A DNA stretch of 64,000 nucleotides from Odiellus spinosus (lineage: Eukaryota > Arthropoda > Arachnida > Opiliones > Phalangiidae): contig OY987231.1 in the NCBI GenBank assembly GCA_963920705.1, positions 21,305,024-21,369,023 on the forward strand. The letters are read 5' to 3'. The notes under the pieces were generated by a model. It had not been told where the DNA came from and did not search any database. It saw only the letters and a list, made by a program, of their open reading frames with translations. Both the position numbers and the translations under genes were made by a program. Below, in pieces: positions 7,934 through 63,662 of this stretch; position 1 is the stretch's first letter; each line of letters begins with the position of its first letter.

Positions 7934-10900
7934 TTAGTTATTTCGCGTGGCGATCAGCAAATACGCCCAATATACCAGAGCAAATGCAATCATGATCATG
8001 GGAAAAACAGTTCGAGATATTTTGTCGAATCTATTCGAGACAAACATCAGGGGATTTAACGACTTTACACCCGTGCCTTTCCTCAGGGGTTCTATTTTAG
8101 AAGACTTAGCAGATTCTCTATTAATATTTACAACTGATATCTGGAAAAAAGAAGATTTTTTAAAAGCATAATACCAGAGAGGATATAACTGGAGAAGAGA
8201 GACACTGATCTAAGTAATTTAATAGGACTTTGATCAAGGACAGAAAAGGCGGGAAAATGGAAGCATGCGGGTTTTATTATCGTTCGTAACGTCAAGAAGG
8301 ATCAGATAAGGAGAGGAAAAGTGGGGCTGCGTTGAGTTAGAGAGAGAAGAGCCAACCTCCCACTCGGGTGAAAAGGGGGGATAGGAAATTCTCGAGGTAA
8401 ACTGTTGTCACGTGGTCGCTAGCTAGCGCGTCTCATAAAGGATTCGTTTTACCCACGTGACAACAATTTACCACGAAGCATCTCTACCCCCGTCTGTCCC
8501 CCGTTCTCCCAGAGTGGGAGTTTAGGCCGACGCAGTAGGAGCCGCGCCGTTCCCACTTTTCCTCTCCTTATCTGATCCTTCTTGGTAACGTCTGATAATT
8601 GAGGAATTACTTTTTCAAGGGTTTCGCAGGAAAGGGTAAAGTTCGGTATATCAAGGAGTTGGAAAATTTCGCCAAAGGTCATGGAATTCTAAAACCAAAA
8701 GGTCATTTTCAAAGAATTGCGCTACGAAACTTGGTGTATAGCTGTAAAAATACCATATGTGGTCACGAAAGAAAGCGGAAATGTTGTAGTCATTTGGTCA
8801 GGGAAAATGCGCAGCGATTTTCAGGGAAATATTAAAAATTAACCTTAATTGCCACAATGTAAGGTTATAATATTAAAATAAAGTATAATTATTGGTAATA
8901 CAAATAGACAAAATATCATCACAGTCTCCCTTCTCCCATTATCTCCTTCATTCAACACGGATGATTACCTACCTGCCCCGTAGTTGGCTTTATAATATTA
9001 TTTAAATTAGCTCTAAATGTGTAGGCAACACTATACTCGATGAAGGACGCAAAAACGAGGCTTAAGCAGGCAAACAACCATACATCTAAGCCGGTAACGT
9101 ATTGAACTGGTGGTAAAACATTCCTGGACTGTATCATTAAAGTCGTTATGGTTAATAAAGCAGTAACGCCTAAAGTTACACGGGCTGGAGCCGCGTCCGC
9201 GTCTATCCAGAAAGATAACCAAGATAAAACAACAACCAAAGAACTTGGTAAAAATACGTTGATTACGCTTCCGGTAAGGCGGCGATGTAGCGTGATGTTA
9301 GCCCATAATTCCGTAAAGTTACCTTAAGAACAACATCAATGTCAACCAGAAGCCGATGAAACCCTCCTTTGAAGTCTACTACTCTAATGTTCCATATAGC
9401 GCTCCTCTCTGTATGGGTAAAATTCCCAATTTTACGAGTTAGAAGGGGTCCTACTTCATACCCCCTGTCTACGGAAAATTGGAAATTCTCTCTCTCCACA
9501 AACGACGACGTTTTTTTGACGAACTCCAAGGCTGCTAGAGATATTCGCTTGACGAACTCCCGCTCCGAAAATATCTACCGTTAGGAGGCGTACGAATCGC
9601 GTTTTTTGAAACTAACCCATACAGAGAGGGGTAGACAAGACCCGGGAGTAATAGACTTCAAAGGAGGGTTTCATCAGCTTCTGATGTCAACGTATATACG
9701 TAAAGATCTAGGGCCGGATCAAGGGAGGGTCCTTTGGGCACAGGTCCCCAGGCGCCAGCCAAAAGGGCCAGGCCGTACCAACCACTCGCCTTTTTGCCTA
9801 CCACACTTCTTTTCAATATTGCAACCTTTGTCAATAGGGGGTGCGGTTGCCTAAAAACGTTTGCGCGTCCTATGGGGGCGCCTAAGTTTTTAGGCTTTCC
9901 CTGGGCTATAAACAAAATAAAAAGGGGCGCTTAGATTAGAGCATTTCCCCGCGGCGATAACCAAACACCAAATTTTGGGGACCCTCTTACGAAAAACTGG
10001 TCCGGTCCTGTACGTATAAAGAATAATCTCCATACCAGTAGCCCATTCTTCTGTTTTACTAAAAGTAACTGGATTTATGATGCGAAATTTCAGTGGTTGA
10101 AATGGATAGGCAAAGTTGATTGCTCGTTTGCCATCAATGTCCCATTTTAACATAACTTCTTCGTCAGAACTGAACACTAGTGATAGAAAACAATATTTGA
10201 AGAGTCGCTCCCAATTCTTACAGTCGCGAAATCTTACAGTCTTATGTCTTGAACAACTGTCTTATTTGTTGGCCGATTTAAGACTTAATTTAACTGAATT
10301 TGATTATATCATTTATACGTCACTTTAAATGAGATCTATCCTTCATTCAACGAAACTAATATCATTTCGTGACCAAGTACACGTAACCGGTACACACTAT
10401 CCCTTTTAGCCCTATCTATTGAAAGTTTGTCCGAAGACCTCCGATAAGCGCGATTCCAGATATTGCTAAGACCAAGGAGGATCAGAGAAGGAGAAGAAAT
10501 GTGGGGCTGCGTTGAGTTAGAGAGAGAAGAGCCAACCTCCCACTCGGGTGGAAAGGGGGGATAGGAAATTCTCGAGGTAAACTGTTGTCAAGTGGTCGCT
10601 AGCTAGCGCGTCTCATAAAGGATTCGTTTTACCCACGCGACAACATTTTACCACGAAACGTCTCTACCCCCGTTCTCCCAGAGTGGGAGTTTAGGCCGAC
10701 GCAGTAGGAACCGCGCCGTCCCCACATTTCCTCTCCTTCTCTGATCCTCCTTGCTAAGACTAACAAATTGAGTTAAAATTCTAGATATAATTACGGTTCA
10801 AATTAGGTCATAAACAATTACTTACTTAACCCAAATTTTATAACGCAGTGTTGCGTATCTAAGGGATAATATGCAAATTCCATAGGGCACGATATTCGCA

Positions 10901-12497
10901 TTATGAACCTTTCTACTTTGAAAAACATTTTGGACGGTAAATATTTATATCCTTTGTTTGGTAATGTATCGACGAACGTTTCGGTTTCTTTGGCGTTTGG
11001 AAATATGACGTCTGGTTTCCACATACAATCACCGAATTCGACAGGGAGATTAATCGGTCGATTATGGTTGGTTATTTGAACTTGAATTTTTTCATTGTAC
11101 CATTTGAGTAATACGTAACAATGGAGGCGAAACTCCTAAATTCAATAAAGTTGTCATCCATTTCTACGGAACTTATTTCCAACAAATTCTCACCCACCAT
11201 ATTATCTTCACGTATTTGATCAATGTCCAAAACTTCGAGAGATAGAAGCACCACGTGTCTTCCCTCTAAAGATGAGGCATTCAATAAATAAATATCTTTA
11301 CCCCAGCAAATGCGCGGCGACACTTCAAACAATATCTCTAAATCGTCAACTGGGACATTCGCGCGATTGTTTCGTGAATACTTTATTCTCTATGAGGCAA
11401 AATCGAGGGGTCAGACACTCTTGATTTCCCTGTACACCTGAGTTCAGCTTTGACAGTGCATTGAGTTCGAAATCTTACGAACTCTGAGTTCAGCTTTGAC
11501 AGTGCAAAGAGTTCTAAAATTTTGTACACCTGAGTTCGCGAGTGTCTGTCCCCTCGGGCAAAATATCGTGTTATAAACCCCTTTATCTTTTCTCATAAAG
11601 CCTACTACTATTGAACAAAAAGTGTGCTTGAAATTGATAACCAACAATTAAAACTTGGTTGATGGTTTCATTGAGAAGCTACTAATTAACCTCTGACGGA
11701 GGTAATTTTGGTCGGGACTGGTGCATAAAGTATATCATGCAAACGTGGTAGGCGCGTATTTAAAGTTAAAAATTAAAATACAATAGAAAATATAGAAAAA
11801 CATCGAGAAAAGATAGGAGGAATAAAATAAAGTTTGCGTAATAAATTTAAAACCAACTTTGCTCGAGTTTTTTCACTAAATATTTAAAGCGCTTTAATAA
11901 CTAGTGTCAGAAGCCGATGAAACCCTCCTTTGAAGTCTATTACTCCCGGGTCTTGTCTACCCCTCTCTGTATGGGTTATTCTCAAAAGGCGCGATCCGTA
12001 CGCCTCCTAACGGTAGATATTTTCGGAGCGGGAGTTCGTCGAGCGAATATCTCTAGCAGCCTCGGAGTTCGTCCAAAAAACGTCGTCGTTTGTGGAGAGA
12101 GAGACTTTCCAATTTTCCGTAGACAGGGAGGATGAAGTAGGACCCCTTCTAACTCGTAAAATTGGGAATTTTACCCATACAGAGAGGAGCGCTATATAGA
12201 ACATTGGAGTAGTAGACTTCAAAGGAGGGTTTCATCGGCTTCTGCTAGTGTCAGTGTAGCCATTAAAAACTTTTCAAACCTTTCAAATTTGGTTTCGTTC
12301 GCTGTCGACAATATTTATAATCATCTTCGCTTATATTCCAATCGTCAGCGTAACTTTTTTTATAATTAAACGTAAAAATTATATTATTACACGAGTTCGT
12401 CACTTTTGTTTCAATTCAAAGTCCAATTATACCTGATATTCAATTGCGAGACAGATCCGATAATAAAATTCACCAAGAACGCCAAAAATATAAGCAT
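7934..12497 (-). CDS. Anion-type Cys-loop ligand-gated ion channel subunit, complete, six exons
   Basis: Pentameric plasma-membrane channel subunit, chloride type by its pore. The exons on the minus strand are 12497-12433, 11387-11198, 11135-10826, 10176-10036, 9322-8973 and 8140-7934. All splice phases agree and give 420 aa. Residues 1-17 form a signal peptide (MLIFLAFLVNF...). The ligand domain has WKPDVIFPNAK and a Cys-loop with 13 residues between C168 and C182 (CPMEFAYYPLDTQHC). M1 lies near 257-275, and M2 near 281-303 begins PARVTLGVTALLT. The PAR motif is the known anion-selectivity signature. M3 is near 311-333, and M4 (FPMIMIAFALVYWAYL, about 399-414) is followed by the stop after a short M3-M4 loop of roughly 50 residues. 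The second disulfide typical of glycine and glutamate-gated chloride channels is not seen. The ligand could be GABA, glycine, pH or another, and cannot be told from sequence. Introns 1, 3, 4 and 5 each hold a MITE; the 62-nt intron 2 does not. Confidence 0.9.
8293..8584 (+). mobile_element. Family C MITE, copy 1
   Basis: The ends are CAAGAAGGATCAGATAAGG and its reverse complement, flanked by the direct repeat GTAACGT (7 bp). It lies in the last intron of the channel gene. The interior is a second long palindrome containing CACGTGGTCGCTAGCTAGCG. It shares the AAGAAGGATC end variant with the copy at 27169. Confidence 0.9.
9347..9683 (-). mobile_element. Family A MITE, copy 1, in the fourth channel intron
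   Basis: The ends are CAGAAGCCGATGAAACCCTC and the inverted match with one change. It is flanked by ATGTCAAC, an 8-bp duplication where most copies have 7. The element ends 24 nt before the 3' splice site of the exon encoding M1-M3 (minus strand). It belongs to the subfamily with TTTTTGAAACTAACCC. Confidence 0.9.
9705..9990. other. GC-rich segment of unknown origin in the fourth channel intron
   Basis: It is markedly richer in G and C than its surroundings (blocks such as AGGGCCGG, CCAGGCGCCAGCC and GGGGGCGCC). Open frames on both strands have no recognised similarity and overlap the intron defined by the channel exons. It may be a fragment of another transposon, though I found no clear terminal repeats. 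Confidence 0.3.
10473..10753 (+). mobile_element. Family C MITE, copy 2
   Basis: The CAAGGAGGATCAGAGAAGG end and its inverted partner are flanked by CTAAGAC on both sides (7 bp). It sits in the third intron of the channel gene (10177-10825). Confidence 0.9.
11404..11556. mobile_element. Family J MITE (153 bp) abutting channel exon 2
   Basis: The terminal inverted repeats CGAGGGGTCAGACACTC and GAGTGTCTGTCCCCTCG are flanked by an exact 8-bp duplication, GGCAAAAT. It holds two copies of TGAGTTCAGCTTTGACAGTG. Its edge is 16 nt upstream of the 3' splice site of channel exon 2 (minus strand). A decayed relative lies near 37360-37432. Confidence 0.8.
11908..12244 (+). mobile_element. Family A MITE, copy 2, in the first channel intron
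   Basis: Complete, with 30-bp terminal inverted repeats and the duplication CTAGTGT on both sides (7 bp). Inside each end the block CCTCTCTGTATGGGT is repeated in inverted orientation, a possible second transposase-binding site. Confidence 0.92.
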
Positions 12498-13257: not shown

Positions 13258-13436
13258 AGCCGCGTTCACACTACAAAATTTGAAACCATTTTTAACCGTT
13301 TTGAAAAAGTGAAATTGAAAATATTTTAGGTCAACTCTAAAAGATCTTATGTATTAAAATATAGAATTATTATCTTGAAACGTTGATATGAAGATTCCAA
13401 ATTGTTTGAAAACGTCTCTAGCGTGAACGTAGCTAA
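13258..13436. mobile_element. Family I MITE, copy 1
   Basis: Ends AGCCGCGTTCACACTA and TAGCGTGAACGTAGCT are inverted repeats shared with the copy at 34709. TTAA precedes the left end; the right flank TAAT looks mutated. The interior shares AACCGTTTTGAAA-type blocks with copy 2. Confidence 0.65.
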
Positions 13437-13876: not shown

Positions 13877-14365
13877 TTAAAGGGAGAATGAAAGGCCAAA
13901 ACAACCTATTTTTAATCGATTAAGAATGGTAAAATAATGAGAAAAACAATAATATAACTCACCAAAAATATTTCATTATTTTATAAACAATTTCCAAAGT
14001 TCCGAAACTTGCGGATGCTAAGCCTTGGCTGCCTAGCTCGGCAAACTAGGCGAGCACGAGCCGTATTTTTTTTTTTAATATTCCCGTCTGATCTAGTCGC
14101 CAATCACGAGCGAGTACGCGTATTTTTAAAATACGCGTACTCGCTCGTGATTGGCGACAAGAACAGCCGCGAATATTAAAAAAAATACGGGTCGTGCTAG
14201 CCTAGTTCACCGAGCTAGGCAGCCTAGGCTTAGCATCGGAACTTTGGAAATTGATTATAAAATAACGAAATATTTTTGGTTGAGTTATATTATTGTTTTT
14301 CTCATTATTTTAGCATTCTTAATCGATTAAAAATATAATGTTTCGGCCTTTCATTCTCCCTTTAA
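13877..14365. mobile_element. Family G MITE, copy 1 (TTAA), nested in a family B remnant
   Basis: The ends are TTAAAGGGAGAATGAAAGG and its inverted match, with TTAA at both edges. Long arms are nearly complementary. The centre (14097-14158) is a perfect 62-bp palindrome with arms GTCGCCAATCACGAGCGAGT... meeting at TTTTTAAAAAT-like DNA. No coding capacity is seen. Confidence 0.88.
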
Positions 14366-14408: not shown

Positions 14409-16250
14409 TTAAATTTTAAGATAATTATCCGCCGAATAGCCAAACATCTCAAAATCGAGTTTGTATATTTGGTACAACTGAGTGCGAGTAGTTAAAGGTA
14501 TATTTTCAAAAATTTTAAGCGCGAAGCTTTCGGTAATCGAACTATTGTAAGTGGTAGTCTGGTAATTAAAATCGAAAGCGAATATCGCGTCATTATTCAG
14601 AGTTTCAACTTTCCCTACGTAATCGTATTTAACTAAGCATGGTTCGCAACGAATCCAGAAAGGTATCCAATGAGCGTCGTAATAAATTGGTGGAGTTTCC
14701 AATAAATAATTCGCAAATTCGTTAAAAGTCAATCTTGGTTTCTCTTTTTCGTTGAAATCACTTCCACGATATCTTTTCATAATTGGTACCGAGTAAGCGT
14801 AATATAAATCTACAAGTTCCTTGCCATCTATAACGACAGTACGACGGCGTGGCTTCACCAACTTATCTAAGAAGACGGACACGAGCCTCGTGAAAGGATG
14901 TCTTACAAATATGATTTTTTTGTAGAAATATTTCGCTAATTCGTTACGCGTGTAGTACGAAGGGCTGACGCGATTCAATAAGAAGTTAGCGTCAGAATGA
15001 AATCCTAAATAGTTAGTAGTTACGTTAATATCGATCAAGGTCATGAAATATTGCTTAAACCTCGCGCTAGCAACTTTTGGGATGAAACAAAAGAAAAGGT
15101 CCGTCAAATCATCAGTTAAGACGCTGCAGCGATCACTATCGCAGCGATCACCGAGGCTTTCTTCTTTGTTGCTATCCATTTTCCACAAGGTGCTCTTTTC
15201 ATTCAACTTGTAGTAATTGCAGACTTTTTCCACGGTTTGCAATCGAATTTTCATTTGTTCCGAGCCGTTTAAGTTAGGAAGTTTATTACTGTTCTAGGAT
15301 AAATATCTATAGTTTATCAGCTGTTTCACGAAGTTTATATTTCATTATTTAATACATCTGACCCCAAAAATATACAATTTGACCTTTAAAAAACTAGTGT
15401 AAACGTATAGCTTAAAGGGAGGATGCAATCTAGCAACTAGTGATTTTTTATCGATTCCTTATTGTTTAAATAGGCCTAATCCACTATTTAAAAAATTTAC
15501 AAACAAATATTAAACTAGAAATAAATTTAAAACTTACCATGAAAATAGGCTTAGTGGTATTCATGGAGCTCCTGATTTCCTCCCGTGTAAGGTCTAACGA
15601 CCAATCGCGCGCGACGTAAGTCTCGTGGAGATCTCGCGTGAACGACGGGCCTTTGCTCATTGGTCGCTAGACCTTACACGGACGCGATTCAGGATCTCCA
15701 TGAGTCCCGCTAAGCCTATTTTCAGGGTAAGTTTTAAATTTATTTCTAGTTTAATATTTATATTGTAAACTTTTTATCGGTGGATTAGGCCTATTTAAAC
15801 GATAAGGAATCGATAAAAAATCACTTGTAATTAGGTTGCATTCTCCCTTTAAAATAAAGCTACTTATATGGAGAATGCAACCTAATTTGTATTTTTTTAC
15901 TGTTGTATTATGCATATTTAAACGATAAGGACTCGATTGGGGTTGGGTTGTCCCTTTAATTGTATCGACTGAAGGCATAAACTCACCATCGAAATAGGTG
16001 TCATAGCTTGAACTTCAATCCAGATATCGTACAAAACTTCATAATTGTCAACTTTAATTGTGGACCAATTCCAAGTACCCCAACCGTCAGCCGTAGTTAT
16101 CAACATATTCGGCTTATTTTGATTTAAAACGAACATATCAGTAAAGAGTAAAACTAAAGCCGAAAACAGAATTAAAACCGATAAAATTTTCAATATAGAA
16201 GCTCTTATCCAAGCAGTTCTTATTATTATCTTCCTTATAAATGGTATCAT
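14409..16250 (-). CDS. Carbohydrate sulfotransferase (HNK-1/chondroitin type), complete, two exons
   Basis: Likely Golgi type II enzyme moving sulfate from PAPS to a glycan. Exon 1 is 16250-15987 and ends at a GTGAGT donor. Exon 2 is 15293-14409. Both meet in phase 0 and give 382 aa. Residues 19-41 are one membrane segment after a basic start (RKIIIRTAWIR). The 5'-phosphosulfate loop is CFIPKVASA (about 157-165) and the 3'-phosphate loop is FVRHPFTRLVS (about 217-227). The family-typical DAHWIPF and RCEPCLVKYDYVGKVETL follow. The length suits the Sulfotransfer_2 family. Oddity: the PAPS-loop Thr usual in PKV(A/G)ST is Ala here. The acceptor chosen, TTTATCCTAG, is pyrimidine-poor but the only one keeping the frame. 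The intron (15294-15986) holds a family B element plus a fragment. The acceptor glycan is unknown. Confidence 0.9.
15412..15852 (+). mobile_element. Family B MITE, copy 1 (TTAA), in the sulfotransferase intron
   Basis: TTAA at both edges; ends AAAGGGAGGATGCAA and TTGCATTCTCCCTTT. Inner inverted blocks include GTGTAAGGTCTA with TAGACCTTACAC and AATAGGCTTAGTGG-type pairs. It lies wholly within the intron. Confidence 0.9.
15865..15960. mobile_element. Small family B fragment
   Basis: GGAGAATGCAACCTAA at the left and GGGTTGTCCCTTTAA at the right, with AAACGATAAGGA inside, resemble a heavily deleted family B copy directly beside the full copy. Confidence 0.5.
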
Positions 16251-16423: not shown

Positions 16424-16762
16424 CAGAAGCCGATGAAACCCTCCTTTGAAGTCTACTATACTCCAATGTTCGATATAGCGCTCCTCTCTGTATGGGTAAA
16501 ATTCCCAATTTTACGAGTTAGAAGGGGTCCTACTTCATCCCCCCTGTCTACGGAAAATTGGAAATTCTCTCTCTCCACAAACGACGACGTTTTTTGGACG
16601 AACTCCGAGGCTGCTAGAGATATTCGCTCGACGAACTCCCGCTCCGAAAACATCTACCGTTAGGAGGCGTACGAATCGCGCCTTTTGAGAATAACCCATA
16701 CAGAGAGGGGTAGACAAGACCCGGGAGTAATAGACTTCAAAGGAGGGTTTCATCGGCTTCTG
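16424..16762 (-). mobile_element. Family A MITE, copy 3
   Basis: Complete. Flanks are GCAATAT and GCAATAC, a 7-bp duplication with one later change. It lies about 170 bp upstream of the sulfotransferase start. Confidence 0.9.
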
Positions 16763-22998: not shown

Positions 22999-23439
22999 TT
23001 AAAGGGAGGATGCAACCTAAGAACAAGTGATTTTTTATCGATTCCTTATTGTTTAAATAGGCCTAATCCACTATTTAAAAAATTTACAAACAAATATTAA
23101 ACTAGAAATAAATTTAAAACTTACCCTGAAAATAGGCTTAGTGGGATTCATGGAGCTCCTCATTTCCTCGCGTGTAAGGTCTAGCGACCAATCGCGCGCG
23201 ACGTAAGTCTCGCGGAGATCTCGCTTGAACGACGGGACTTTGCTCATTGGTCGCTAAACCTTACACGGACGCGATTCAGGATCTCCATGAAACCCGCTAA
23301 GCCTATTTTCAGGGTAAGTTTTAAATTTATTTCTAGTTTAATATTTGTATTGTAAACTTTTTATCGGTGGATTAGGCCTATTTAAACGATAAGGAATCGA
23401 TAAAAAATCACTTGTAATTAGGTTGCATTCTCCCTTTAA
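22999..23439 (+). mobile_element. Family B MITE, copy 2
   Basis: TTAA on both sides; ends AAAGGGAGGATGCAA and TTGCATTCTCCCTTT. The orientation and arm sequence match the copy in the sulfotransferase intron closely. Confidence 0.9.
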
Positions 23440-24916: not shown

Positions 24917-25334
24917 CAGAGGTATATAATAACCCCCTTCGGGGGGAAGTATGAAAGCCCCTATACTACCAATGCTAAAAATCACGAACAACAAGAGCCC
25001 GCTGCTGACTATCTAGGCCACTAGCTCGCGCTGGACTTCTCAATGTCGCTACTCTAGTAAATGGTCTTTGTATAAACAAGACGGCTCGATTTGTGTTTAG
25101 AACTTCCTGTCTCGGGAGTCAGGCTCTCTGTTAAAACGGAGTCCAAGGTTGACTTCAGCTCGCGAGTTCCGGAAGTGTGCGTAGGGAAAATTTTGTGAGG
25201 TTAAAAATGGTGTAACTATTTTTTGGGAGTAAAGCGGTGTGTCGATCCGCCGCGATTTACGCCGGGCACTCGTTGTTCGTCGATTTTGCCTACCTTTCAT
25301 ACTTCCCCCCGAAGGGGGTTATTATATACCTCTG
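24917..25334 (+). mobile_element. Family D MITE, copy 1
   Basis: Inverted ends of about 40 bp begin CAGAGGTATATAATAACC and include CCCCTTCGGGGGG and AAGTATGAAAG. The flanks are CTCAAAG on both sides (7 bp). It is 418 bp long, with no transposase frame. Confidence 0.9.
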
Positions 25335-27168: not shown

Positions 27169-27461
27169 CAAGAAGGATCTGATAAGGAGAGGAAAAGTGG
27201 GGCTGCGTTTAGTTAGAGAGAGAAGAGCCAACCTCCCACTCGGGTGGAAAGGGGGGATAGGAAATTCTCGAGGTAAACTGTTGTCACGTGATCGCTAGCT
27301 AGCGCGTCTCATAAAGGATTTCGTTTTACCCACGTGACAACAATTTACCACGAAGCATCTCTATCCCCGTCTGTCCCCCGTTCTCCCAGAGTGGGAGTTT
27401 AGGCCGACGCAGTAGGAGCCGCGCCGTTCCCACTTTTCCTCTCCTTATCTGATCCTTCTTG
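27169..27461 (+). mobile_element. Family C MITE, copy 3
   Basis: The flanks are GTTCGAG on both sides (7 bp). It carries the CAAGAAGGATCAGATAAGG end variant, like copy 1 and unlike the other three, so two end variants circulate in this window. Confidence 0.9.
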
Positions 27462-28820: not shown

Positions 28821-29162
28821 CAAAAGCCGATGAAACCCTCCTTTGAAGTCTATTACTCCCGGGTCTTGTCTACCCCTCTCTGTATGGGTTATTCTCAAAA
28901 GGCGCGATTCGTACGCCTCCTAACGGTAGATGATTTCGGAGCGGGAGTTCGTCGAGCGAATATCTCTAGCAGCCTCGGAGTTCGTCCAAAAACGTCGTCG
29001 TTTGTGGAGAGAGAGAGAATTTCCAATTTTCCGTAGACAGGGGGGGGGGATGAAGTAGGACCCCTTCTAACTCGTAAAATTGGGAATTTTACCCATACAG
29101 AGAGGAGCGCTATATGGAACATTGGAGTAGTAGACTTCAAAGGAGGGTTTCATCGGCTTCTG
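28821..29162 (+). mobile_element. Family A MITE, copy 4
   Basis: Flanks are ATATTTC on both sides (7 bp). The left end has one change (CAAAAGCCG). A longer G-run near 29040 and an extra GA repeat make it slightly longer than its relatives. Confidence 0.9.
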
Positions 29163-29536: not shown

Positions 29537-29817
29537 CAAGGAGGATCAGAGAAGGAGAAGAAATGAGGGGACGGCGCGGTTCCTACTGCGTCGGCCTAAA
29601 CTCCCACTCTGGGAGAACGGGGGTAGAGACGTTTCGTGGTAAAATGTTGTCGCGTGGGTAAAACGAATCCTTTATGAGACGCGCTAGCTAGCGACCACGT
29701 TACAACAGTTTACCTCGAGAATTTCCTATCCCCCCTTTCCACCCGAGTGGGAGGTTGGCTCTTCTCTCTCTAACTCAACGCAGCCCCACATTTCCTCTCC
29801 TTCTCTGATCCTCCTTG
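29537..29817 (-). mobile_element. Family C MITE, copy 4
   Basis: Flanks are GTTCAAT on both sides (7 bp). It is inverted relative to copies 1-3. Confidence 0.9.
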
Positions 29818-32518: not shown

Positions 32519-32855
32519 CAGAAGCCGATGAAACCCTCCTTTGAAGTCTTCTACTCCAATGTTCCATATAGCGCTCCTCTCTGTATGAGTAAAATTCCCA
32601 ATTTTACGAGATCGGAGGGGTCCTACTTCATACCCCCTGTCTACGGAAAATTGGAAATTCTCTCTCTCCACAAACGACGACGTTTTTTGGACGAACTCCA
32701 AGGCTGCTAGAGATATTCGCTCGACGAACTCCCCCTCCGAAAATATTTACCGTTAGGAGGCGTGCGAATCGCGCCTTTTGAGAATAACCCATACAGAGAG
32801 GGGTAGACAAGACCAGGGAGTAATAGACTTCAAAGGAGGGTTTCATCTACTTCTG
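32519..32855 (-). mobile_element. Family A MITE, copy 5 (mosaic of subfamilies)
   Basis: Flanks are GTTTCAG and GCTTCAG, a 7-bp duplication with one change. It combines GAGATCGGAGGGG, typical of one subfamily, with TTTTGAGAATAACCC, typical of the other. Confidence 0.88.
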
Positions 32856-33951: not shown

Positions 33952-34287
33952 CAGAAGCCGATGAAACCCTCCTTTGAAGTCTACTACTCCAATGTTCCAT
34001 ATAGCGCTCCTCTCTGTATGGGTAAAATTCCCAATTTTACGAGTTAGAAGGGGTCCTACTTCATCCCCCCTGTGTACGGAAAATTGGAAATTCCCTCTCT
34101 CCACAAACGACGACGTTTTTTGGACGAACTCCAAGGCTGCTAGAGATATTCGCTCGACGAGCTCCGGCTCCGAAATCATCTACCGTTAGGAGGCGTACGA
34201 ATCGCGCCTTTTGAGAATAACCCATACAGGAGGGGTAGACAAGACCCGGGAGTAATAGACTTCAAAGGAGGGTTTCATCGGCTTCTG
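33952..34287 (-). mobile_element. Family A MITE, copy 6
   Basis: Flanks are CTAGTAT on both sides (7 bp). Complete ends. Confidence 0.9.
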
Positions 34288-35884: not shown

Positions 35885-36202
35885 CCTTTGAAGTCTACTA
35901 CTCCAATGTTCCATATAGCGCTCCTCTCTGTATGGGTAAAATTCACAATTTTACGAGTTAGAAGGGGTCCTACTTCATCCCCCCTGTCTACGGAAAATTG
36001 GAAATTCTCTCTCTCCACAAACGACGACGTTTTTTGGACAAACTCCGAGGCTGCTAGCGATATTCGCTCGACGAGCTCCCGCTTCGAAAATATCTACCGT
36101 TAGGAGGCGTACGAATCGCGCCTTTCGAGAATAACCCATACAGAGAGGGGTAGACAAGACCCGGGAGTAATAGACTTCAAAGGAGGGTTTCATCGGCTTC
36201 TG
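35885..36202 (-). mobile_element. Family A MITE, copy 7, truncated end
   Basis: It starts at CCTTTGAAGTC and lacks about the first 21 bp of the terminal repeat. The right end is intact. No target duplication remains. Confidence 0.85.
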
Positions 36203-36803: not shown

Positions 36804-37084
36804 CAAGGAGGATCAGAGAAGGAGAGGAAATGTGGGGACGGCGCGGTTCCTACTGCGTCGGCCTAAACTCCCACTCTGGGAGAACGGGGGTAGAGACGTT
36901 TCGTGGTAAAATGTTGTCACGTGGGTAAAACGAATCCTTTATGAGACGCGCTAGCTAGCGACCACGTGACAACAGTTTACCTCGAGAATTTCCTATCCCC
37001 CCTTTCCACCCGAGTGGGAGGTTGGCTCTTCTCTCTCTAACTCAACGCAGCCCCACATTTCCTCTCCTTCTCTGATCCTCCTTG
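36804..37084 (-). mobile_element. Family C MITE, copy 5
   Basis: Flanks are ATATTAA on both sides (7 bp). It is nearly identical to copy 4 in the same orientation. Confidence 0.9.
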
Positions 37085-37561: not shown

Positions 37562-38004
37562 TTAAAGGGAGAATGCAACCTAATTACAAGTGATTTTTTA
37601 TCGATTCCTTATCGTTTAAATAGGCCTAATCCATCGATAAAAAGTTTACAAAACAAATATTAAACTAGAAATAAATTTAAAACTTACCCTGAAAATAGGC
37701 TTAGCGGGATTGATGGAGATCCTGAATCGCGTCCGTGTAAGGTCTAGCGACCAATGAGCGAAGGCCCGTCGTTCACGCGAGATCTCCACGAGACTTACAG
37801 TCGCGTGTGATTGGTCGCTAGAACTTACACGCGAGGAAAACAGGACCTCCATGAATCCCACTAAGCCTATTTTCAGGGTAAGTTTTAAATTTATTTCTAG
37901 TTTAATATTTGTTTGTAAATTTTTTAAATAGTGGATTAGGCCTATTTAAACAATAAGGAATCGATAAAAAAATCACTTGTTGTTAGGTTGCATCCTCCCT
38001 TTAA
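37562..38004 (-). mobile_element. Family B MITE, copy 3
   Basis: TTAA on both sides; the left end reads AAAGGGAGAATGCAACC and the right GGTTGCATCCTCCCTTT. The orientation is opposite to copies 1 and 2, judged by the unequal arms. Confidence 0.9.
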
Positions 38005-41974: not shown

Positions 41975-42311
41975 CAGAAGCCGATGAAACCCTCCTTTGA
42001 AGTCTACTACTCCAATGTTCCATATAGCGCTCCTCTCTGTATGGGAAAAATTCCCAATTTTACGAGTTAGAAGGGGTCCTACTTTATCCCCCCTGTCTAC
42101 GGAAAATTGGAAATTCTCTCTCTCCACAAACGACGACGTTTTTTGGACGAACTCCGAGGCTGCTAGAGATATTCGCTCGACGAGCTCTCGCTCCGAAAAC
42201 ATCTACCGTTAGGAGGCGTGCGAATCGCGCCTTTTCAGAATAACCCATACAGAGAGGGGTAGACAAGACCCGGGAGTAATAGACTTCAAAGGAGGGTTTC
42301 ATCGGCTTCTG
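41975..42311 (-). mobile_element. Family A MITE, copy 9
   Basis: Flanks are ATTAGAG on both sides (7 bp). Complete ends. Confidence 0.92.
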
Positions 42312-43139: not shown

Positions 43140-45144
43140 ATGGAGGTGAACAGCTCGTCTTTAACATCGGTGATCTACACGATCTCTCCTTTGTCAATCA
43201 AATATGAAAGTGAAATTGAAGTTTACGCTTATTTCGGGGCAAATATGAGCGCGGACGACGTAGCTCGAGAGTACTTTAACCGTTGGCACGGCACGCGTAT
43301 CGTACCTATGGAAGTAACGGTGGGAATATGCATTTGTGGCACCATTTTAAATACTTTGAATATTTTGGTGTTTTCGAGAAAATCTATGTTGAACTCGATA
43401 AGTATATTGTTAATGGCTTTCGAAACGGCCAATATTCTCATCTTCTTGAGTTTCTTCTTGCAATCCGTGGATTATTTCGCCCCTCTAGATTTTATCTTCA
43501 CATTTCCATGGGCATTCATATTGAGGTAAATAATAAAAGTTTTATAATAAATGGCCAGTGCTTTAGTTATATATTTACGGCATATAATGATGAAACATTT
43601 AAAAGTCAATACAAGTTATCAATTACGTATGAAATATCCCAAGCCTGAATGTCGAATCATTATTTGAAACCAAGGACAAATTTAGAATTCGTTTTTAACG
43701 CGATTACAAAAACTTGTAGAGATGATTTTATAGAAGCCAGTAAGAATTTTGAATTAATATAATATGACCTCGTAGAATTTTTTTAATTTCTTCGAAATTA
43801 TTATTGGCCGATTAACGTGTTACATATGTAACCAGAGATATATAATAACCCCCTTCGGGGGGAAGTATGAAAGCCCCTATACACTACCAATGCTAAAAAT
43901 CACGAACAACAAGAGCCCGCTGCTGACTATCTAGGCCACTAGCTCGCGCTGGACTTCTCAATGTCGCTACTCTAGTAAATGGTCTTTGTATAAACAAGAC
44001 GGCTCGATTTGTGTTTAGAACTTCCTGTCTCGGGAGTCAGGCTGTCTGTTAAAATGGAGTCGAAGGCTGACTTCAGCTCGCGAGTTCCGGAAGTGCGCGT
44101 AGGGAAAATTTAGTGAGGTTCAAAATGGTGTAACTATTTTTTGGGAGTTAAGCGGTGTGTCGATCCGCCGCGATTTACGCCGGGCACTCGTTGTTCGTCG
44201 ATTTTGCCTACCTTTCATACTTCCCCCCGAAGGGGGTTATTAGATACCTCTGATGTAACTGATAACATCTTAACGCTTTTACGCGTCCATATCACGCAGA
44301 TTTTATCCGTTTCTTCGTCTCGTGGGAGCATATTCATTGAGTTGGTTCGCCGCTTCCATCGGTGTGTGGCGTTGCCTGGCTGTATCGTCTTCTTTAAAGG
44401 CTCACAAATGGCTGACGAAGTCCAGGGCTAACAAACTGGTCATGATCATCTTTTCCATTTCGTTCTTGTTGGCGATTCAAAGTTTCTTTATCGCAAACTT
44501 CTACTCGGAGGTCAGAATGGATCCAGTTACAGGCGAGAACAAGACGATTCATTGTCTACTACCGTCAAAATCGTACCACAATTATCGTGTGGTAATCGTA
44601 ACCTTCACTATGATTGCCGCGGCTTTTATACCAGCTACCATACTGCTCGTGTCCACCGTATTCTTGATACATTCCTTATACAGGTAAATACAAAATCTCT
44701 AAAATATTGTTTTTATCTCGATTGTTTTAACAAAAAACCTTTGACGCGTGTTTTTTTCACAGAGCCAGTGGATTGCGGAAAAAGTTGTCGAAACGAAGTT
44801 TGAAACAAATCAAAGATCACGACGATGGCAAAGAGAAGAGCGTCAGTGTCATGATGTTAACGGTACTTTTACTGTTCCTCCTCAATTGGGTACCTTATGG
44901 AATCGCCACAGGAATATACTTCGCGTTCAAAGACCAATACAGAATGGGGCTTCTCTCGTGGAATCCTATGGCAGTTATCCATTACATGCTAATGGACGAT
45001 ACGTTACCCCTAGTGAACAACACGTGTACCTTCTTCATTTATTACCACATGAGTGAAAATTTTCGACGAAGATTTTGGAGATTTTTCGCTAGAGCTAGCC
45101 CACCAGACTATAACAGTCAAACTTCGTTAAAATCTAGATTATAG
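43140..45144 (+). CDS. Rhodopsin-like (class A) GPCR, FMRFamide-receptor-like, paralog 1, three exons
   Basis: Plasma-membrane seven-helix receptor. Exons 43140-43525, 44300-44683 and 44763-45144 join in phases 2 and 2 and give 383 aa. The ATG at 43140 is chosen because the frame upstream has no other ATG. TM1 is near 58-78 (GTILNTLNILVFSRKS) and TM2 near 86-110. The end of TM3 reads GVWRCLAV (W152-C154) where most class A receptors have D/E-R-Y; the Arg is kept. TM6 has NWVPYG, and TM7 runs into NNTCTFFIYYHMSENFRRRF, shaped like NPxxY followed by helix 8 but without the Pro. No Cys is seen at the start of TM3, though ECL2 has one (HCLLP). Intron 1 holds a family D MITE. Peptide-receptor affinity is inferred from overall shape, and the ligand is unknown. 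Confidence 0.85.
43833..44252 (+). mobile_element. Family D MITE, copy 2, in GPCR 1 intron 1
   Basis: The inverted ends begin CAGAGATATATAATAACC, and the right end finishes GATACCTCTG. Flanks are ATGTAAC on both sides (7 bp). It lies inside the first intron (43526-44299). Confidence 0.9.
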
Positions 45145-50811: not shown

Positions 50812-51252
50812 TTAAAGGGAGAATGCAACCTAATTACAAGTTATTTTTTATCGATTCCTTATCGTTTAAATAGGCCTAACCCACCGATAAAAAGTTTACA
50901 ATACAAATATTAAACTAGAAATAAATTTAAAACTTACCCTGAAAATAGGCTTAGCGGGATTGATGGAGATCCTGAATCGCGTCCGTGTAAGGTCTAGCGA
51001 CCAATGAGCGAAGGCCCGTCGTTCACGCGAGATCTCCACGAGACTTACGTCGCGCGCGATTGGTCGCTAGACCTTACACGCGAGGAAATCAGGAGCTCCA
51101 TGAATCCCACTAAGCCTATTTTCAGGGTAAGTTTTAAATTTATTTCTAGTTTAATATTTGTTTGTAAATTTTTTAAATAGTGGATTAGGCCTATTTAAAC
51201 AATAAAGAATCGATAAAAAATCACTTGTTGTTAGGTTGCATCCTCCCTTTAA
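50812..51252 (-). mobile_element. Family B MITE, copy 4
   Basis: TTAA on both sides; same orientation and arm variants as copy 3. Confidence 0.9.
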
Positions 51253-51273
51253 CCCTAAAGGGTTCGAACGAAA

Positions 51274-55111: not shown

Positions 55112-55162
55112 CCTTAAAAATAAGCGAATTTTGCCATAGTGTGAAGCTGCCAAGGCCAATAT

Positions 55163-55500
55163 CAGAAGCCGATGAAACCCTCCTTTGAAGTCTATTACTC
55201 TAATGTTCGATATAGCGCTCCTCTCTGTATGGGTAAAATTCCCAATTTTACGAGATCGGAGGGGTCCTACTTCATACCCCCCTGTCTACGCAAAATTGGA
55301 AATTCTCTCTCTCCACAAACGACGACTTTTTTTTGACGAACTCCGAGGCTGCTAGAGATATTCGCTCGACGAACTCCCACTCCGAAAATATCTACCGTTA
55401 GGAGGCGTACGAATCGCGCTTTTTGAAACTAACCCATACAGAGAGGGGTAGACAAGACCCGGGAGTAATAGACTTCAAAGGAGGGTTTCATCTACTTCTG
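55163..55500 (-). mobile_element. Family A MITE, copy 10
   Basis: Flanks are CCAATAT on both sides (7 bp). It lies 51 bp past the stop codon of GPCR 2, so probably within or next to its 3' UTR. It belongs to the subfamily with TTTTTGAAACTAACCC. Confidence 0.92.
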
Positions 55501-56291: not shown

Positions 56292-59200
56292 ATGAATTTG
56301 AATAACAGTGTCGATGAGGATTATAAAGTTTTAAAAGCGCATTATCTAAATGTAAGGCGGTTTTTATCATGAAAACATAAGTGGATTAAATATAAATCCA
56401 ATTATTATATATATATTTATATACCAAAGTAAATGTTTTTGCTTTTTGTTTTAGTATATGCCTTGGTTGAACGCTACAGATGAGAATGGAAATAATATGG
56501 AAGGGCTAGTTGGAGTCCTAATGGACTACGTCCGGAAATCAATGAATTTAAGGTTTGATATTATTTAAAATCATTATGGACTATATCAACGATTTTTCTG
56601 AATATGCCTACTCAATTTCCATTTGGAGTTGATATCTTCGCGTATTAAAAACCTTTGGAAAATTGTACAAAAAAGAAATTGGAAAAGATTCAGATTTGAT
56701 TATTCAATTAAACGGATAACCTCGACTAATCAAAAGGCTTCATAAATATCCGCGGGATTTTATTAAGCCAAGGATGGGGCGTCTTTTGATTAGTCGGAGG
56801 TTTTACTTTTAATTCAATGATACCAGAAGCCGATGAAACCCTCCTTTGAAGTCTATTACTCCCGGGTCTTGTCTACCCCTCTCTGTATGGGTTATTCTCA
56901 AAAGGCGCGATTCGTACGCCTCCTAACGGTAGATGTTTTCGGAGCGGGAGCTCGTCGAGCGAAAATCTCTAGCAGCCTTGGAGTTCGTCCAAAAACGTCG
57001 TCGTTTGTGGAGAGAGAGAATTTCCAATTTTCCATAGACAGGGGGGATGAAGTAGGACCCCTTCTAACTCGTAAAATTGTGAATTTTACCCATACAGAGA
57101 GGAGCGCTATATGGAACATTGGAGTAGTAGACTTCAAAGGAGGGTTTCATCGGCTTCTGATGATACCTAAAGCAGAAGGTTTCCAATCTTTTGAAACTTC
57201 TTGAATGTTTTAGTACGCGATCTTGTCGTATTTTGAGAAGGTGAATCAAATAAAAAATCCCTTAATTTTCCTCTTCACCTTCCCTTTAAACATTGGAAAC
57301 TATTTGATCCAACGGCGACCAACCTACGGAAATGAGCGCGTGAGAATAATTATTGTTACTGCCATGTTTTAGATTCGAACTGATGACTTCCAACGAAGCA
57401 CCAATCATCGGGGAGAAAGGAGACGACGGTAATTGGACTGGTGTTGCTGGATTAATCAACAGAAACGTTAGTAAAATTCATATTTAGCCTTAGGAGTAAT
57501 TAGTAGGAGGGTAAACCAATTTATAACTTGAGAGACTGTACTAACAAATTATAGGAAACGCAAATATCATTATTGGCAATAATTTTAAAAGACGGTGAAC
57601 TAGACGGGGCTAGGGCAACCTTTCCACTTTGGTTCACGACCTTAACTATTCTATCGGGTCTACCACCGGGTTTCAACGACGAGTTTTTTGATCTGTTAAT
57701 ACCTTTCGACAAAGAGGTATACTAAAAACATTCAAACGTATTCAAACCGCGTGACATTAAAAGCAACATCATTTTTAGTCCGAAATATGCTTGGTAATAT
57801 CCGTCATAACCTTAACTTTACTGTCCTTCGGATTGGAAAGAGTGATGGTTGGAGTTCTTCCAGATCCGCGTAAACTTCGTAAAATAACCTTCTTGGAACA
57901 CTGCTCATTATTCGTGAAACCAACTGCGTATCAGCGTAAGAGAAACGCTCTTGATATTGTCTTAACCCTTTAAAGAAACGAATTCTTTATTTTGTGTTTT
58001 TACGAATCTACGTTATTGAAAAGCTAAGATATGTAACAACTTTTATTTTTAAGTATTCACCAGAAGCCGATGAAACCCTCCTTTGAAGTCTACTACTCCA
58101 ATGTTCCATATAGCGCTCCTCTCTGTATGGGTAAAATTCCCAATTTTACGAGTTAGAAGGGGTCCTACTTCATCCCCCTGTCTACGGAAAATTGGAAATT
58201 CTCTCTCTCCACAAACGACGACGTTTTTTGGACGAACTCCAAGGCTGCTAGAGATATTCGCTCGACGAGCTCCCGCTCCGAAAACATCTACCGTTAGGAG
58301 GCGTACGAATCGCGCCTTTTGAGAATAACCCATACAGAGAGGGGTAGACAAGACCCGGGAGTAATAGACTTCAAAGGAGGGTTTCATCGGCTTCCGATAA
58401 AAGTCTAATTTCTATTATTTCGGCCGTGTTTTAACTCTCTAAGGGCAATTTGGTCCATACGAACAGTAATGAACTACACTAAAATAAATTTGAAGAATAC
58501 CTGGGGGCAAGCCGGTTTCTCTCGGGTCACACGCTCCAAAACGGAGTCTATTGGCTGGGTTTCACCAAATTTATGTACCAGATATCGAAACCTTTTATTT
58601 TCATATTTATAAGATGCTTAAAAATAAGAGTTAATATTTTTTTAAAGTTTTAGAAAACGTAGATTCAGAAAAGCTAATATTTTTGGCTTTTAATTTCTTA
58701 GCCGTTACAAATAGCAAAACCATACCACGTTCATCGGCCGCTAAGATTTGTTTCATCATGTGGTGGTTGACTATGCTCGTTATGGCTAATTTATTCAGTA
58801 GCCAATTAAAGGCGAATAGTTCGGCTTTTCAAACTCCTTTCCGATTCGACTACCTGGAAGACATCGTCGAATTCCCCGATATCAGAGTTATTATGTTTCG
58901 AGAACCGAGTATAGTTGGATTTTTTAAGGTAAGTTTTAAAGACGAATGCTATTTCGGCATTAAGTAATTTACTTAAACATCATTTAAATAGAAATCTCCA
59001 CGCGCTCTGGATCGGGCTGTCTTTCAACAAATTGAGAGAACTTCTGGTTTGGTAGATCTAGAAGAATTCTTAACGGAAAGTAACATGGAGGCCACGAGAC
59101 TGGGAAAATCAATTATAGTTGGCGAATTATATACATTAGCGGAAAAATTTAAAGTAGAATGCCTGACTAACGACTCGTACCAGATGGGTAAAGGCAGATT

Positions 59201-59619: not shown

Positions 59620-59626
59620 GTTTTAA

Positions 59627-59964
59627 CAGAAGCCGATGAAACCCTCCTTTGAAGTCTACTACTCTAATGTTCGATATAGCGCTCCTCTCTGTATGGGTAA
59701 AATTCCCAATTTTACGAGATCGGAGGGGTCCTACTTCGTACCCCCCTGTCTACGGAAAATTGGAAATTCTCTCTCTCCACAAACGACGACATTTTTTTGA
59801 CGAACTCCGAGGCTACTAGAGATATTCGCTGGACGAACTCCCGCTCCGAAAATATCTACCGTTAGCAGGCGTACGAATCGCGCTTTTTGAAACTAACCCA
59901 TACAGAGAGGGGTAGACAAGACCAGGGAGTAATAGACTTCAAAGGAGGGTTTCATCGGCTTCTG
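59627..59964 (-). mobile_element. Family A MITE, copy 13, directly after the IR 1 stop codon
   Basis: The 7-bp duplication GTTTTAA starts at the base after the TAA stop (59617-59619) and recurs after the element. The IR 1 3' UTR must therefore begin in, or read through, this element. Confidence 0.92.
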
Positions 59965-61509: not shown

Positions 61510-63662
61510 ATGAATTATAGTGAACATGATCACAGTGTTCTCAAGGCGCATTACTACGAGGTAAGTCTAGAAGTATCAATTCGTCTCCCCTTTGGACTAA
61601 TTCGAAATTACACTTGAACAAAAGTATATAAATATAAATTTTAACCCCTTATATTTCAGTTTATGCCATATTTTAAAATGGCAAATGATACCAGCAACGT
61701 GGAAGGAATTTGCGGCGTTGTAATAAATTATATCATGAAATCTATGAACATAAGGTTTGATTTAATAATTTCAGTTTTCTTGGGAAAACTTTCATTCTAT
61801 ATACAATTCAATCAAGTTTTTCAAGCTTTTTTTATCACTTGAAGCCTGATAACGTGGGCTAAACGAAAAGATTGATTTCAAGCTTCAACTTTGATTGAAA
61901 ACGCCCCTTTAGAAAAGTTTCTTCCCATATTTGCAATGTTAAACTTGTTTGCGAGGCTGAAAATAGTTTTTTTTTATGTTTAAGATACGAGGTGATTCCG
62001 TCCAATATAATACCCACACTAGGATCAAAGCAAAAGGATGGTTCTTGGGATGGTGTAGTTGGGCTGATACATAAAAATGCGAGTGAAATTTGTTTAATTT
62101 GACCAGAAGCCGATGAAACCCTCCTTTGAAGTCTCTTACTCCCGGGTCTTGTCTAACCCTCTCTGTATGGGTTAGTTTCAAAAAGCGCGATTCGTACGCC
62201 TCCTAACGGTAGATATTTTCGGAGCGGGAGTTCGTCCAGCGAATATCTCTAGCAGCCTTGGAGTTCGTCAAAAAAACGTCGTCGTTTGTGGAGAGAGAGA
62301 ATTTCCAATTTCCCGTAGACAGGGGGGATGAAGTAGGACCCCTCCGATCTCGTAAAATTGGGAATTTTACCCATACAGAGAGGAGCGCTATATCGAACAT
62401 TAGAGTAGTAGACTTCAAAGGAGGGTTTCATCTACTTCTGATTTGACTAATTTAGAACTTAGCGTAACATTTTAAAGTGTGGTTGACACATATTTTTCAT
62501 GAACTCTAAATGGAAATTGAGTTGAAAAACGATTTAAATAAAAATTCCCCGCAATATTTTAGAGTGAACAGTTGATTTTCGCGCTTTTTTGGCACGTGAT
62601 AAGGTTGATTTCGTGCGGTCTTTTCCGTAATTACGTCATATATCGGAAAAAAATTAGAGGTCGGGATTTGAACAAGATAATTTCTGTTTTATCTTTATTC
62701 ATAACTTGAAATAATCCACGGATTTTTATGATAAATGTAATGTAATCGCGAATATTTAACTGATTATTATTAATAATTAACTGACTAACCAAAAAATTGT
62801 GGATAATCTTGTCCAAATCCCGACCTCAAAAAAATTACCTATATATTTCTGAAATTTTCATTTTGAAGTTTCTGAAAAAGGTGTCAACCTAGACGTATAA
62901 AAGTTCGAATATCACGTTTTAATATTATGATAAAACAAAAAAATATAGTTCATGGGCATTCGAAAAAATGATGACAGCCTCATCTTAAAATGTTTTTAAT
63001 CACAGGACACGCAGTTTTCATTTTTACCAATTATTCCAACGCCAAACGATCTCGAAATTGCCGAACTAACGTTTCCATTTTGGTTCACGTCATTCGCGAT
63101 ATTATCTGGTCTCCATTCTGGGTTCAAAAGAGAAGTTTTCAACTTCTTCGACGAAACAGTAAGGTTAATGGGTACGGTATAAAAAAGGTGATTACATTAC
63201 AATATTTCTAGACAGAGATATGTTTGGCTGTTTGTTTCATAATCTTAACTTTGATGTCCTTCTCAATGGAACGTAAGATTATTCAAGTATTCCCGACCAC
63301 GCGACATAAAACTCGCCCCGTATCATTCCAAAAACATTGCACATTGTTTCTTAGACCAATTTTCTATCAAGGTAAGATTTATAGTCGTACCACACATAGA
63401 TTTAAATTATAATCGGTTATTAATTGAACTTTCAGCCGTCTCCAACATAAATATTATACCCGTTTCATCAGCAGCTAAACTATGTTTCATCATGTGGTGG
63501 ATGACTATGATTGTTATGTTCAATTTGATCAGTAGCCAATTAACGGCAGCTAGCTCATCCTTGACTAAGCCTTTTCGATTTGACAGCCTCGAAGATATAT
63601 TACAATTTCCGAACACCAGAATTATAATCATTAAAGACCCGAACGTATATAAGTATTTTCAG
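61510..63662 (+). CDS. Divergent ionotropic receptor (IR), paralog 2, 3' end beyond the window
   Basis: Paralog of the IR at 56292. Exons found: 61510-61560, 61660-61754, 61985-62078, 63006-63158, 63212-63371 and 63436-63662. Exon lengths match or nearly match (exon 3 is 94 nt and exon 6 is 227 nt in both genes), and phases are the same. Landmarks are VLKAHYYEFMPYF at the start of S1, SWDGVVGLIHKN, TFPFWFTSFAILSG, M1 CLAVCFIILTLMSFSME, pore and M2 FIMWWMTMIVMFNLISSQL, and FRFDSLEDILQF leading into S2. Exon 3 ends at GCGAGT rather than a GT donor. The last two exons (rest of S2, M3, stop) should lie past 64000. Like its paralog it starts without a signal peptide. Confidence 0.8.
62104..62440 (+). 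mobile_element. Family A MITE, copy 14, in IR 2 intron 3
   Basis: Flanks are ATTTGAC on both sides (7 bp). Its left edge is 25 nt after the 5' splice site. It belongs to the subfamily with GGTTAGTTTCAAAAAGCGCG. Confidence 0.92.
62471..62989 (+). mobile_element. Family L element in IR 2 intron 3, split by a family F insertion
   Basis: Left end TTAAAGTGTGGTTGACAC, right end GATGACAGCCTCATCTTAA. The family F repeat at 62657-62827 sits within it, so L is the older insertion. Confidence 0.6.
62657..62827. mobile_element. Family F repeat nested in family L
   Basis: Inverted ends GAGGTCGGGATTTGAACAAG and CTTGTCCAAATCCCGACCTC. The flanks AAAAAAATTA (about 10 bp) repeat on both sides. A 9-10-bp duplication would suit a Mutator-like element, but superfamily cannot be settled from a non-coding copy. 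Confidence 0.75.

What the first reader, a model, noticed from the sequence alone, without database searches (positions are those of the whole stretch)
8286..62447. Three MITE families share a palindromic 7-bp target pattern, hAT-like but one base short
Seen: families A, C and D have unrelated interiors but CA...TG ends and 7-bp duplications. Readable examples are ATTAAAC, CTAGTGT, GCAATAT, GTTTCAG, CTAGTAT, ATTAGAG, CCAATAT, ATGATAC, GTTTTAA, ATTTGAC, ATATTTC (A); GTAACGT, CTAAGAC, GTTCGAG, GTTCAAT, ATATTAA (C); CTCAAAG, ATGTAAC (D). Position 2 is T in 16 of 18 and position 6 is A in 15 of 18; position 1 is never T. The pattern nTnnnAn is its own complement. Known: Ac-type hAT transposases use 8-bp nTnnnnAn sites with CA(G/A)nG-type ends. 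The one 8-bp case here (ATGTCAAC at 9339) fits that longer form. Inference: one hAT-like transposase with a shortened staggered cut mobilises all three families.
Basis: partly seen in the sequence, partly recalled or inferred. Interest (0 to 1): 0.75.

Follow-up and report, generated by a model that had tools for sequence, protein, structure and literature searches.

The report
Three MITE families, one 7-bp target
Three unrelated kinds of very short parasitic DNA in this animal-like genome land in the same symmetrical sequence and copy seven bases of it; seven-base versions of this behaviour are already known in two transposon superfamilies, and which of them moves these copies is still open.

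Summary
The window holds 13 complete A, 5 C and 2 D copies: 16 of 20 have exact 7-bp duplications, 2 more have 7 bp with one mismatch. In the window's own 443-Mb genome, of 103 sampled copies 81 have exact 7-bp duplications, 13 have 7 bp with one mismatch and 2 have 8 bp. The 81 exact sites share a wider palindrome, Tnn-nTAnTAn-nnA: T-3 58, T2 62, A6 63, A+3 57 of 81. 'hAT-like but one base short' is not unique: 7-bp duplications with T2/A6 are published for 1360 and Galileo (P superfamily), and 7-bp hATs as hAT7 in fungi. The -3/+3 bases match the hAT Tol2 and are the reverse of P, 1360 and Galileo. Unrelated termini and family-specific target differences argue against one single transposase. 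hAT and P transposases both abound, but none was found inside an element with A, C or D ends; the lists compared are incomplete. I lean towards hAT (about 0.48) over P (0.35).

The parts
8293..8584 (+). C MITE, 292 bp, TSD GTAACGT
9347..9683 (-). A MITE, 337 bp, TSD ATGTCAAC (8 bp)
10473..10753 (+). C MITE (CAAGGAGG subfamily), TSD CTAAGAC
11908..12244 (+). A MITE, TSD CTAGTGT
16424..16762 (-). A MITE, TSD GCAATAT/GCAATAC
24917..25334 (+). D MITE, 418 bp, TSD CTCAAAG
27169..27461 (+). C MITE, TSD GTTCGAG
28821..29162 (+). A MITE, TSD ATATTTC
29537..29817 (-). C MITE, TSD GTTCAAT
32519..32855 (-). A MITE, TSD GTTTCAG/GCTTCAG
33952..34287 (-). A MITE, TSD CTAGTAT
35885..36202 (-). A MITE lacking its outer left end (start approximate); right flank TTTCAAC
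36804..37084 (-). C MITE, TSD ATATTAA
38996..39332 (+). A MITE, TSD ATTAAAC
41975..42311 (-). A MITE, TSD ATTAGAG
43833..44252 (+). D MITE, 420 bp, TSD ATGTAAC, between open frames that look GPCR-like by eye
55163..55500 (-). A MITE, TSD CCAATAT
56824..57159 (+). A MITE, TSD ATGATAC
58061..58396 (-). A MITE with no matching duplication
59627..59964 (-). A MITE, TSD GTTTTAA
62104..62440 (+). A MITE, TSD ATTTGAC
63670..64000 (+). A MITE cut by the window end; left flank GTAAAAT

Best explanation
A, C and D are three independent families of non-coding cut-and-paste miniature elements. Related, but probably not identical, transposases of hAT type move them in trans. The transposase assembles both ends (terminal CA...TG, perfect inverted repeats of 32-41 bp) and captures a palindromic target, Tnn-nTAnTAn-nnA. 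It joins the two 3' ends to opposite strands 7 nt apart; gap repair then gives the 7-bp duplication. Shown: families, ends, 7-bp stagger, shared 13-bp target motif, low divergence of the sampled copies. Inferred: that the transposase is a hAT (a hAT7-like one) rather than a P-superfamily enzyme, and that there is more than one of it.
For: 7 bp in 94 of 103 sampled copies, allowing one mismatch. The same palindrome in A, C and D. Of 162 half-sites, T-3 in 115 against A-3 in 27; Tol2's published target is TNA(C/G)TTATAA(G/C)TNA, while the motifs quoted for 1360/P (ANAGT) and Galileo (AANGT) put A at -3 if GT is read as positions 1-2 of the duplication. Termini CAG/CAA/CAG: the hAT 3' ends read in this genome start CAGT(G/A)GCGCCGCCAGG, while the P elements read start CATAGA. 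hATs with 7-bp duplications exist (hAT7). PF05699 has at least 150 matches here. Sampled copies are young: median divergence from consensus 0.9% A, 0.3% C, 0.7% D, over 48, 20 and 21 distinct sequences (best-scoring hits, so biased to young).
Against: No transposase was found inside an element with these ends. hAT7 is described only in fungi in the paper read. The inner motif nTAnTAn is that of Galileo (GTANTAC) rather than Tol2 (TTATAA): 66 half-sites have TA at positions 2-3 against 33 with TT. Rare 8-bp cases beside 7-bp ones are also reported for Galileo. TIRs of 32-41 bp are long for a hAT (recalled). No duplication of a hAT in this genome could be read, so its hAT stagger is unknown.
Confidence: 0.48

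Rival explanations
1. The transposases are of the P superfamily, of the 7-bp kind of 1360 and Galileo; A, C and D are P-type MITEs.
For: 7-bp duplications with T2/A6 are the rule for 1360 (274 of 279 insertion sites, GTTNAAC) and Galileo (GTANTAC, occasional 8 bp). P elements of this genome have CA...TG ends. P-type transposases look more numerous here than hAT, with the caution that the two models are not strictly comparable: 386 first-look candidates for PF21787, 150 scored, 32 of them in open frames of 600 aa or more by my count, against 220 candidates for PF05699.
Against: The P-type elements whose duplications could be read make 8 bp: GTTATAAC in L064 by script, and by eye TTTAAAAC (L056) and AATAAATA (L057), where the script reported 6 bp because it set the end 2 bases off, and GTAGGAGC in L054 (one search gives the same 8 bp one base over, TAGGAGCC). 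One flank each of 11 such copies, read by eye, has T-3 in 3 of 11. T-3/A+3 is the reverse of the P-superfamily A-3/T+3. The MITE ends start CAG/CAA, not CAT. None of 150 PF21787 domains lies within 10 kb of the 212 listed ends compared (208 distinct places; nearest 10.2 kb).
Confidence: 0.35
2. One single transposase mobilises all three families.
For: Same stagger and same 13-bp palindrome in all three.
Against: By eye and without gaps, the first 11 bases of the consensuses differ at 4 (A-D), 8 (A-C) and 9 (C-D) positions, so they fail the Repbase end rule quoted (at most 1 mismatch). Target composition differs between families at -4 (p 0.001), -3 (0.005) and 1 (0.004); local base composition may contribute.
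Confidence: 0.12
3. Another superfamily with 7-bp duplications: Dada or KDZ (Kyakuja).
For: Dada makes 6-7 bp; Kyakuja makes 7 bp with CA..TG ends.
Against: Dada families with definable ends sit in small RNA genes, and Dada-U6 and Dada-U1 have no terminal inverted repeats, whereas the window has no Rfam match at gathering level. The two Kyakuja families described have no TIRs, whereas A, C and D have 32-41 bp perfect TIRs. PF18758 gave 0 matches in the genome, but its controls were silent too, so this shows little.
Confidence: 0.07

Closest known systems
hAT7 (hAT families with 7-bp duplications, Puccinia and Melampsora; PMC12730594, passages seen)
   Same: 7-bp duplications in a superfamily that usually makes 8
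   Different: Fungal, classified by their transposases, twenty families carry a TET/JBP gene, clustered with Ac/Tam3 and other fungal hATs; here non-coding MITEs in an animal-like genome, superfamily not proven
Tol2 (hAT; PMC2753552, PMC8151067, passages seen)
   Same: Palindromic target with T-3, A-1, T2 and mirror bases; MITE D starts CAGAGGT as Tol2 does (Tol2 end recalled)
   Different: 8-bp duplication; TTATAA core, here TAnTA; T-3/A+3 stronger here (58/81 and 57/81; 46% reported for Tol2)
1360 and Galileo (P superfamily; PMC3276498, PMC4168063, PMC2775673, passages seen)
   Same: 7-bp duplications with T2/A6, rare 8-bp cases in Galileo, palindrome wider than the duplication
   Different: A at -3 (ANAGT / AANGT); Galileo has very long TIRs; no P-type protein linked to A, C or D

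Membership tests
hAT superfamily | hAT transposase (dimerisation domain) encoded by an element with the same ends | tested here: inconclusive
   150 of 220 PF05699 candidates scored. 171 listed ends (100 A of 231, 52 C of 120, 19 D of 19) compared with them; 2 of 171 lie within 10 kb and neither is an autonomous partner. The 41 ends were not compared with hAT by script. 3' flanks of 16 hATs (about 1.25 kb each): no A, C or D end within 4 mismatches except a whole C MITE in one.
hAT superfamily | 8-bp duplication (5, 6, 7 in hAT5, hAT6, hAT7) | tested here: inconclusive
   7 bp, so only the hAT7 variant fits
hAT superfamily | Ends C/T-A-A/G-n-G (recalled) | tested here: inconclusive
   D CAGAG and the C subfamily CAAGG fit; A CAGAA and C CAAGA fail at position 5
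hAT superfamily, Tol2-like targeting | TNA...TNA around the duplication | tested here: met
   T-3 58/81, A+3 57/81; A-1 34/81 and T+1 30/81 weak
P superfamily (1360/Galileo kind) | 7-bp duplication with T2/A6 | tested here: met
P superfamily (1360/Galileo kind) | A-3/T+3 outer target bases | tested here: not met
   A-3 in 27 of 162 half-sites, T-3 in 115 (published motif)
P superfamily (1360/Galileo kind) | P-type transposase in an element with the same ends | tested here: inconclusive
   212 listed ends (100 of 231 and 41 A, 52 C of 120, 19 D) against 150 of 386 PF21787 candidates: none within 10 kb; 171 ends against 47 of 68 PF12017 places: none within 10 kb
Dada | Insertion in multicopy small RNA genes | tested here: not met
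   no Rfam match at gathering level in the window; sites elsewhere not tested
KDZ (Kyakuja) | KDZ transposase in the genome | tested here: inconclusive
   0 matches, but controls silent as well

The most novel reading that the evidence does not exclude
An animal hAT lineage with a 7-bp stagger (an animal counterpart of hAT7, arisen separately) whose transposases recognise very different ends but keep one 13-bp target palindrome, so that unrelated MITE families in a genome can be grouped by target motif rather than by their ends.
Probability: 0.22. Interest if true: 0.55.

Novelty: new member of a known kind. Interest (0 to 1): 0.35.

Why it matters
It shows that duplication length and a nTnnnAn logo do not tell hAT from P, because the same 7-bp pattern is published for P-superfamily elements and 7-bp duplications for hAT7. 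The bases outside the duplication (-3/+3) may do so and can be tested on any well-annotated genome. If a 7-bp hAT is confirmed in an animal, structural models of hAT strand transfer would have to allow a one-base change in target spacing while the target contacts keep their place.

Tried and rejected
Rejected: chance or alignment artefact; 8-bp duplications misread as 7 (2 of 103 are 8). A 2.5-kb P-type element as the C partner: it lies INSIDE a C MITE in L054, with its own ends CATAGA and an 8-bp duplication, and only shares a 14-nt inner stretch with the C end. The group CAAGAAGGATCAGACAAGG...GTAT as the C partner: the two copies fetched are ordinary C MITEs. The hAT next to C2:30769543: the nearby C end is a 22-bp remnant of two fused ends. 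Single A-type ends in L125/L127: no convincing second end within 4.5 kb (up to 5 mismatches, duplication not matching) and no frame over 110 aa. The hAT 4.6 kb from an A end at C8:11792116: that end reads as an A MITE with one base lost, and two hATs of like score end in CAGTGGCG; its own end was not fetched. L061/L062 P-type gene: repeat boundaries without inverted repeats. Viral and bacterial collections: no exact match to a 28-nt A end or, in viral contigs, to a 26-nt D end. A last pattern search meant to read the duplication of a hAT in this genome did not complete, so one of 12 genome searches stayed unused.

Rows dropped before counts: logos use only exact 7-bp copies (81 of 103). A came from L001-L030 (30 best of 1403 first-look candidates), C from 20 of 753 and D from 20 of 1675 by rank, plus the window and incidental copies in held loci; all are biased to young copies. 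Two further C copies with 7-bp flanks, seen later in L132 and L133, are not in the tally. One search counts each distinct sequence once (48 A, 20 C, 21 D); its A and C maxima of 0.45 and 0.35 probably come from copies left in the wrong orientation, which stay in the medians. In one search, 47 of 68 PF12017 matches and 52 of the 100 listed C places (of 120) were typed; the places inside the P-type element and two second-strand repeats were left out. Of the 231 A places only 100 were listed; 8 were fetched: 5 are A MITEs with indels, 1 has A ends and another interior, 2 are single ends.
Full report
WHAT WAS CHECKED. The window is a 64-kb stretch of contig C7 of a 443-Mb assembly in 286 contigs.

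OBSERVATION. Approximate matching of the ends found 14 left and 14 right A ends, 5 C pairs and 2 D pairs. A structure-only scan (inverted repeat plus flanking direct repeat, no prior motif) recovered 5 of 5 C, 1 of 2 D and 6 of 13 A copies with 7-bp repeats. Of 13 complete A copies, 9 have exact 7-bp duplications, 2 have 7 bp with one mismatch, 1 has 8 bp (ATGTCAAC) and 1 has none; C is 5 of 5 and D 2 of 2.

GENOME-WIDE SAMPLE. The first look of the genome search gave 1403, 753 and 1675 candidates for A, C and D. I read flanks of the 30 best A hits, 20 C and 20 D, plus the window copies and copies met by chance. Tally: A 51 copies (37 exact 7 bp, 6 with one mismatch in 7, 2 of 8 bp, 1 of 10 bp in a microsatellite, 1 of 6 bp, 4 unclear); C 30 (27 exact, 2 with one mismatch, 1 with two); D 22 (17 exact, 5 with one mismatch). 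The sample is ranked by similarity and so favours young copies.

TARGET MOTIF. The 81 exact sites show T-3 58, A-1 34, T2 62, A3 42, T5 38, A6 63, T+1 30 and A+3 57 of 81. T-3, T2, A6 and A+3 are enriched in each family separately (p from 5e-3 to 2e-9). The palindrome is a property of the columns, not of single sites: column-shuffled sites are as palindromic as the real ones. The families differ at -4, -3 and 1 (permutation p 0.001, 0.005, 0.004), weakly at -1 and 2 (0.04), and not at -2, 3 and 4. Local base composition could contribute to this.

ELEMENT ANATOMY. Consensus A is 337 bp with a 32-bp perfect TIR inside a 72-bp imperfect one; C is 292 bp with a 33-bp perfect TIR and weak self-complementarity throughout; D is 418 bp with a 41-bp perfect TIR. 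Interiors look unrelated. Median divergence from consensus is 0.9%, 0.3% and 0.7% over 48, 20 and 21 distinct sequences. An A-ended element with a different interior exists (L126, flanked by CTCAAAA, read by eye).

WHICH TRANSPOSASE? Both candidate superfamilies are plentiful. PF05699 (hAT dimerisation) has 220 first-look candidates, 150 scored. PF12017 (P-type) has 68 matches. PF21787 (P-type RNase H) has 386 candidates, 150 scored. Both ends of one 4.4-kb P-type element were read: CATAGA...TCTATG, duplication GTTATAAC, with P-type domains. A 2.5-kb relative is inserted in a C MITE with an 8-bp duplication. A hAT 3' end, seen where two copies diverge, reads inwards CAGTGGCGCCGCCAGG; two further hATs have the same or nearly the same stretch. 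Searches for A, C and D ends followed by non-MITE sequence gave 231, 120 and 19 places, and 41 for a second A pattern. By eye most of those listed are MITE ends with an indel, fused remnants, or the P element's inner stretch. Compared by position with transposase domains, 2 of 171 ends lay within 10 kb of one of 150 hAT domains and none near 47 PF12017 places; neither of the two looks like an autonomous partner. None of 212 listed ends (208 distinct places) lay within 10 kb of 150 PF21787 domains. So no autonomous partner was found, but the lists are incomplete and this does not show that none exists.

WEIGHING hAT AGAINST P. For hAT: the -3/+3 bases equal those of Tol2 and are the reverse of P, 1360 and Galileo; the ends start CAG/CAA; and hATs with 7-bp duplications have been published as hAT7. 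For P: 7 bp with T2/A6 is the rule in 1360 and Galileo, the inner TAnTA equals Galileo's, the occasional 8-bp case is also seen in Galileo, and P-type transposases look the more numerous here. The P-type copies of this genome whose duplications could be read make 8 bp and show T-3 in 3 of 11 flanks (by eye). The stated probabilities (0.48 and 0.35) are judgement, not computation. Dada and KDZ are unlikely, though the KDZ search itself was uninformative.

LITERATURE. A search for 7-bp duplication phrases gave 13 papers, and one for hAT5/6/7 gave 129, of which in the 15 listed only PMC12730594 is about transposons, judged by title. In these listings no animal 7-bp hAT came up; Repbase's own text uses 'hAT ... 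7-bp TSD' as an example of a query, so such entries may exist. Papers were seen as passages or listings only.

VERDICT. A correct and well-seen pattern, extended here to a 13-bp target. Ordinary in kind: MITEs of a long-stagger superfamily with published 7-bp precedents. The superfamily call and the single-transposase claim stay open, the latter with evidence against it.

Noticed in passing
L054 154-2651 (G000:C4, near 8489942): A 2.5-kb P-type element sits inside a C MITE with duplication GTAGGAGC, so it moved after that C copy.
   Followed up: yes
L054 2521-2538 and relatives among L046-L060; This P-type family carries, about 113 bp inside its right end, 14 nt identical to the C end (CAAGAAGGATCAGA); possibly a remnant of a C-type insertion or a shared binding site. 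Unexplained.
   Followed up: partly
L134 44-65; other places: Minimal remnants of 22-24 bp made of two fused C ends (such as CAAGAAGGATCAGATCCTTCTTG) recur with different flanks; the one read has 7-bp flanks alike at 6 of 7. They look like products of aberrant excision or gap repair.
   Followed up: partly
G000: The genome holds a rich set of P-superfamily transposases: 150 scored PF21787 matches, 32 in open frames of 600 aa or more by my count, several in groups with the same score and frame length.
   Followed up: no
MITE hits often seem to lie in other parts of the large contigs than the hAT and P transposase hits (for example many on C2 at 2-5 Mb against 25-32 Mb). Not tested statistically.
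   Followed up: no
window about 13878-14364, 15412-15852, 22999-23439, 37562-38004, 50812-51252: Further inverted-repeat copies ending TTTAAAGGGAGAATG or similar, probably with TTAA duplications.
   Followed up: no
window 5679-5964 and 53802-54087: Two 286-bp copies, 99% identical, with inverted ends like ATAGTCCTGGTCGATTT, another short inverted-repeat family.
   Followed up: no
window 62657-62827: 171-bp inverted-repeat element flanked by 10-bp direct repeats AAAAAAATTA.
   Followed up: no
window 3145-5154: Tandem array of about 19 copies of a 95-bp unit, mostly 96-98% alike.
   Followed up: no
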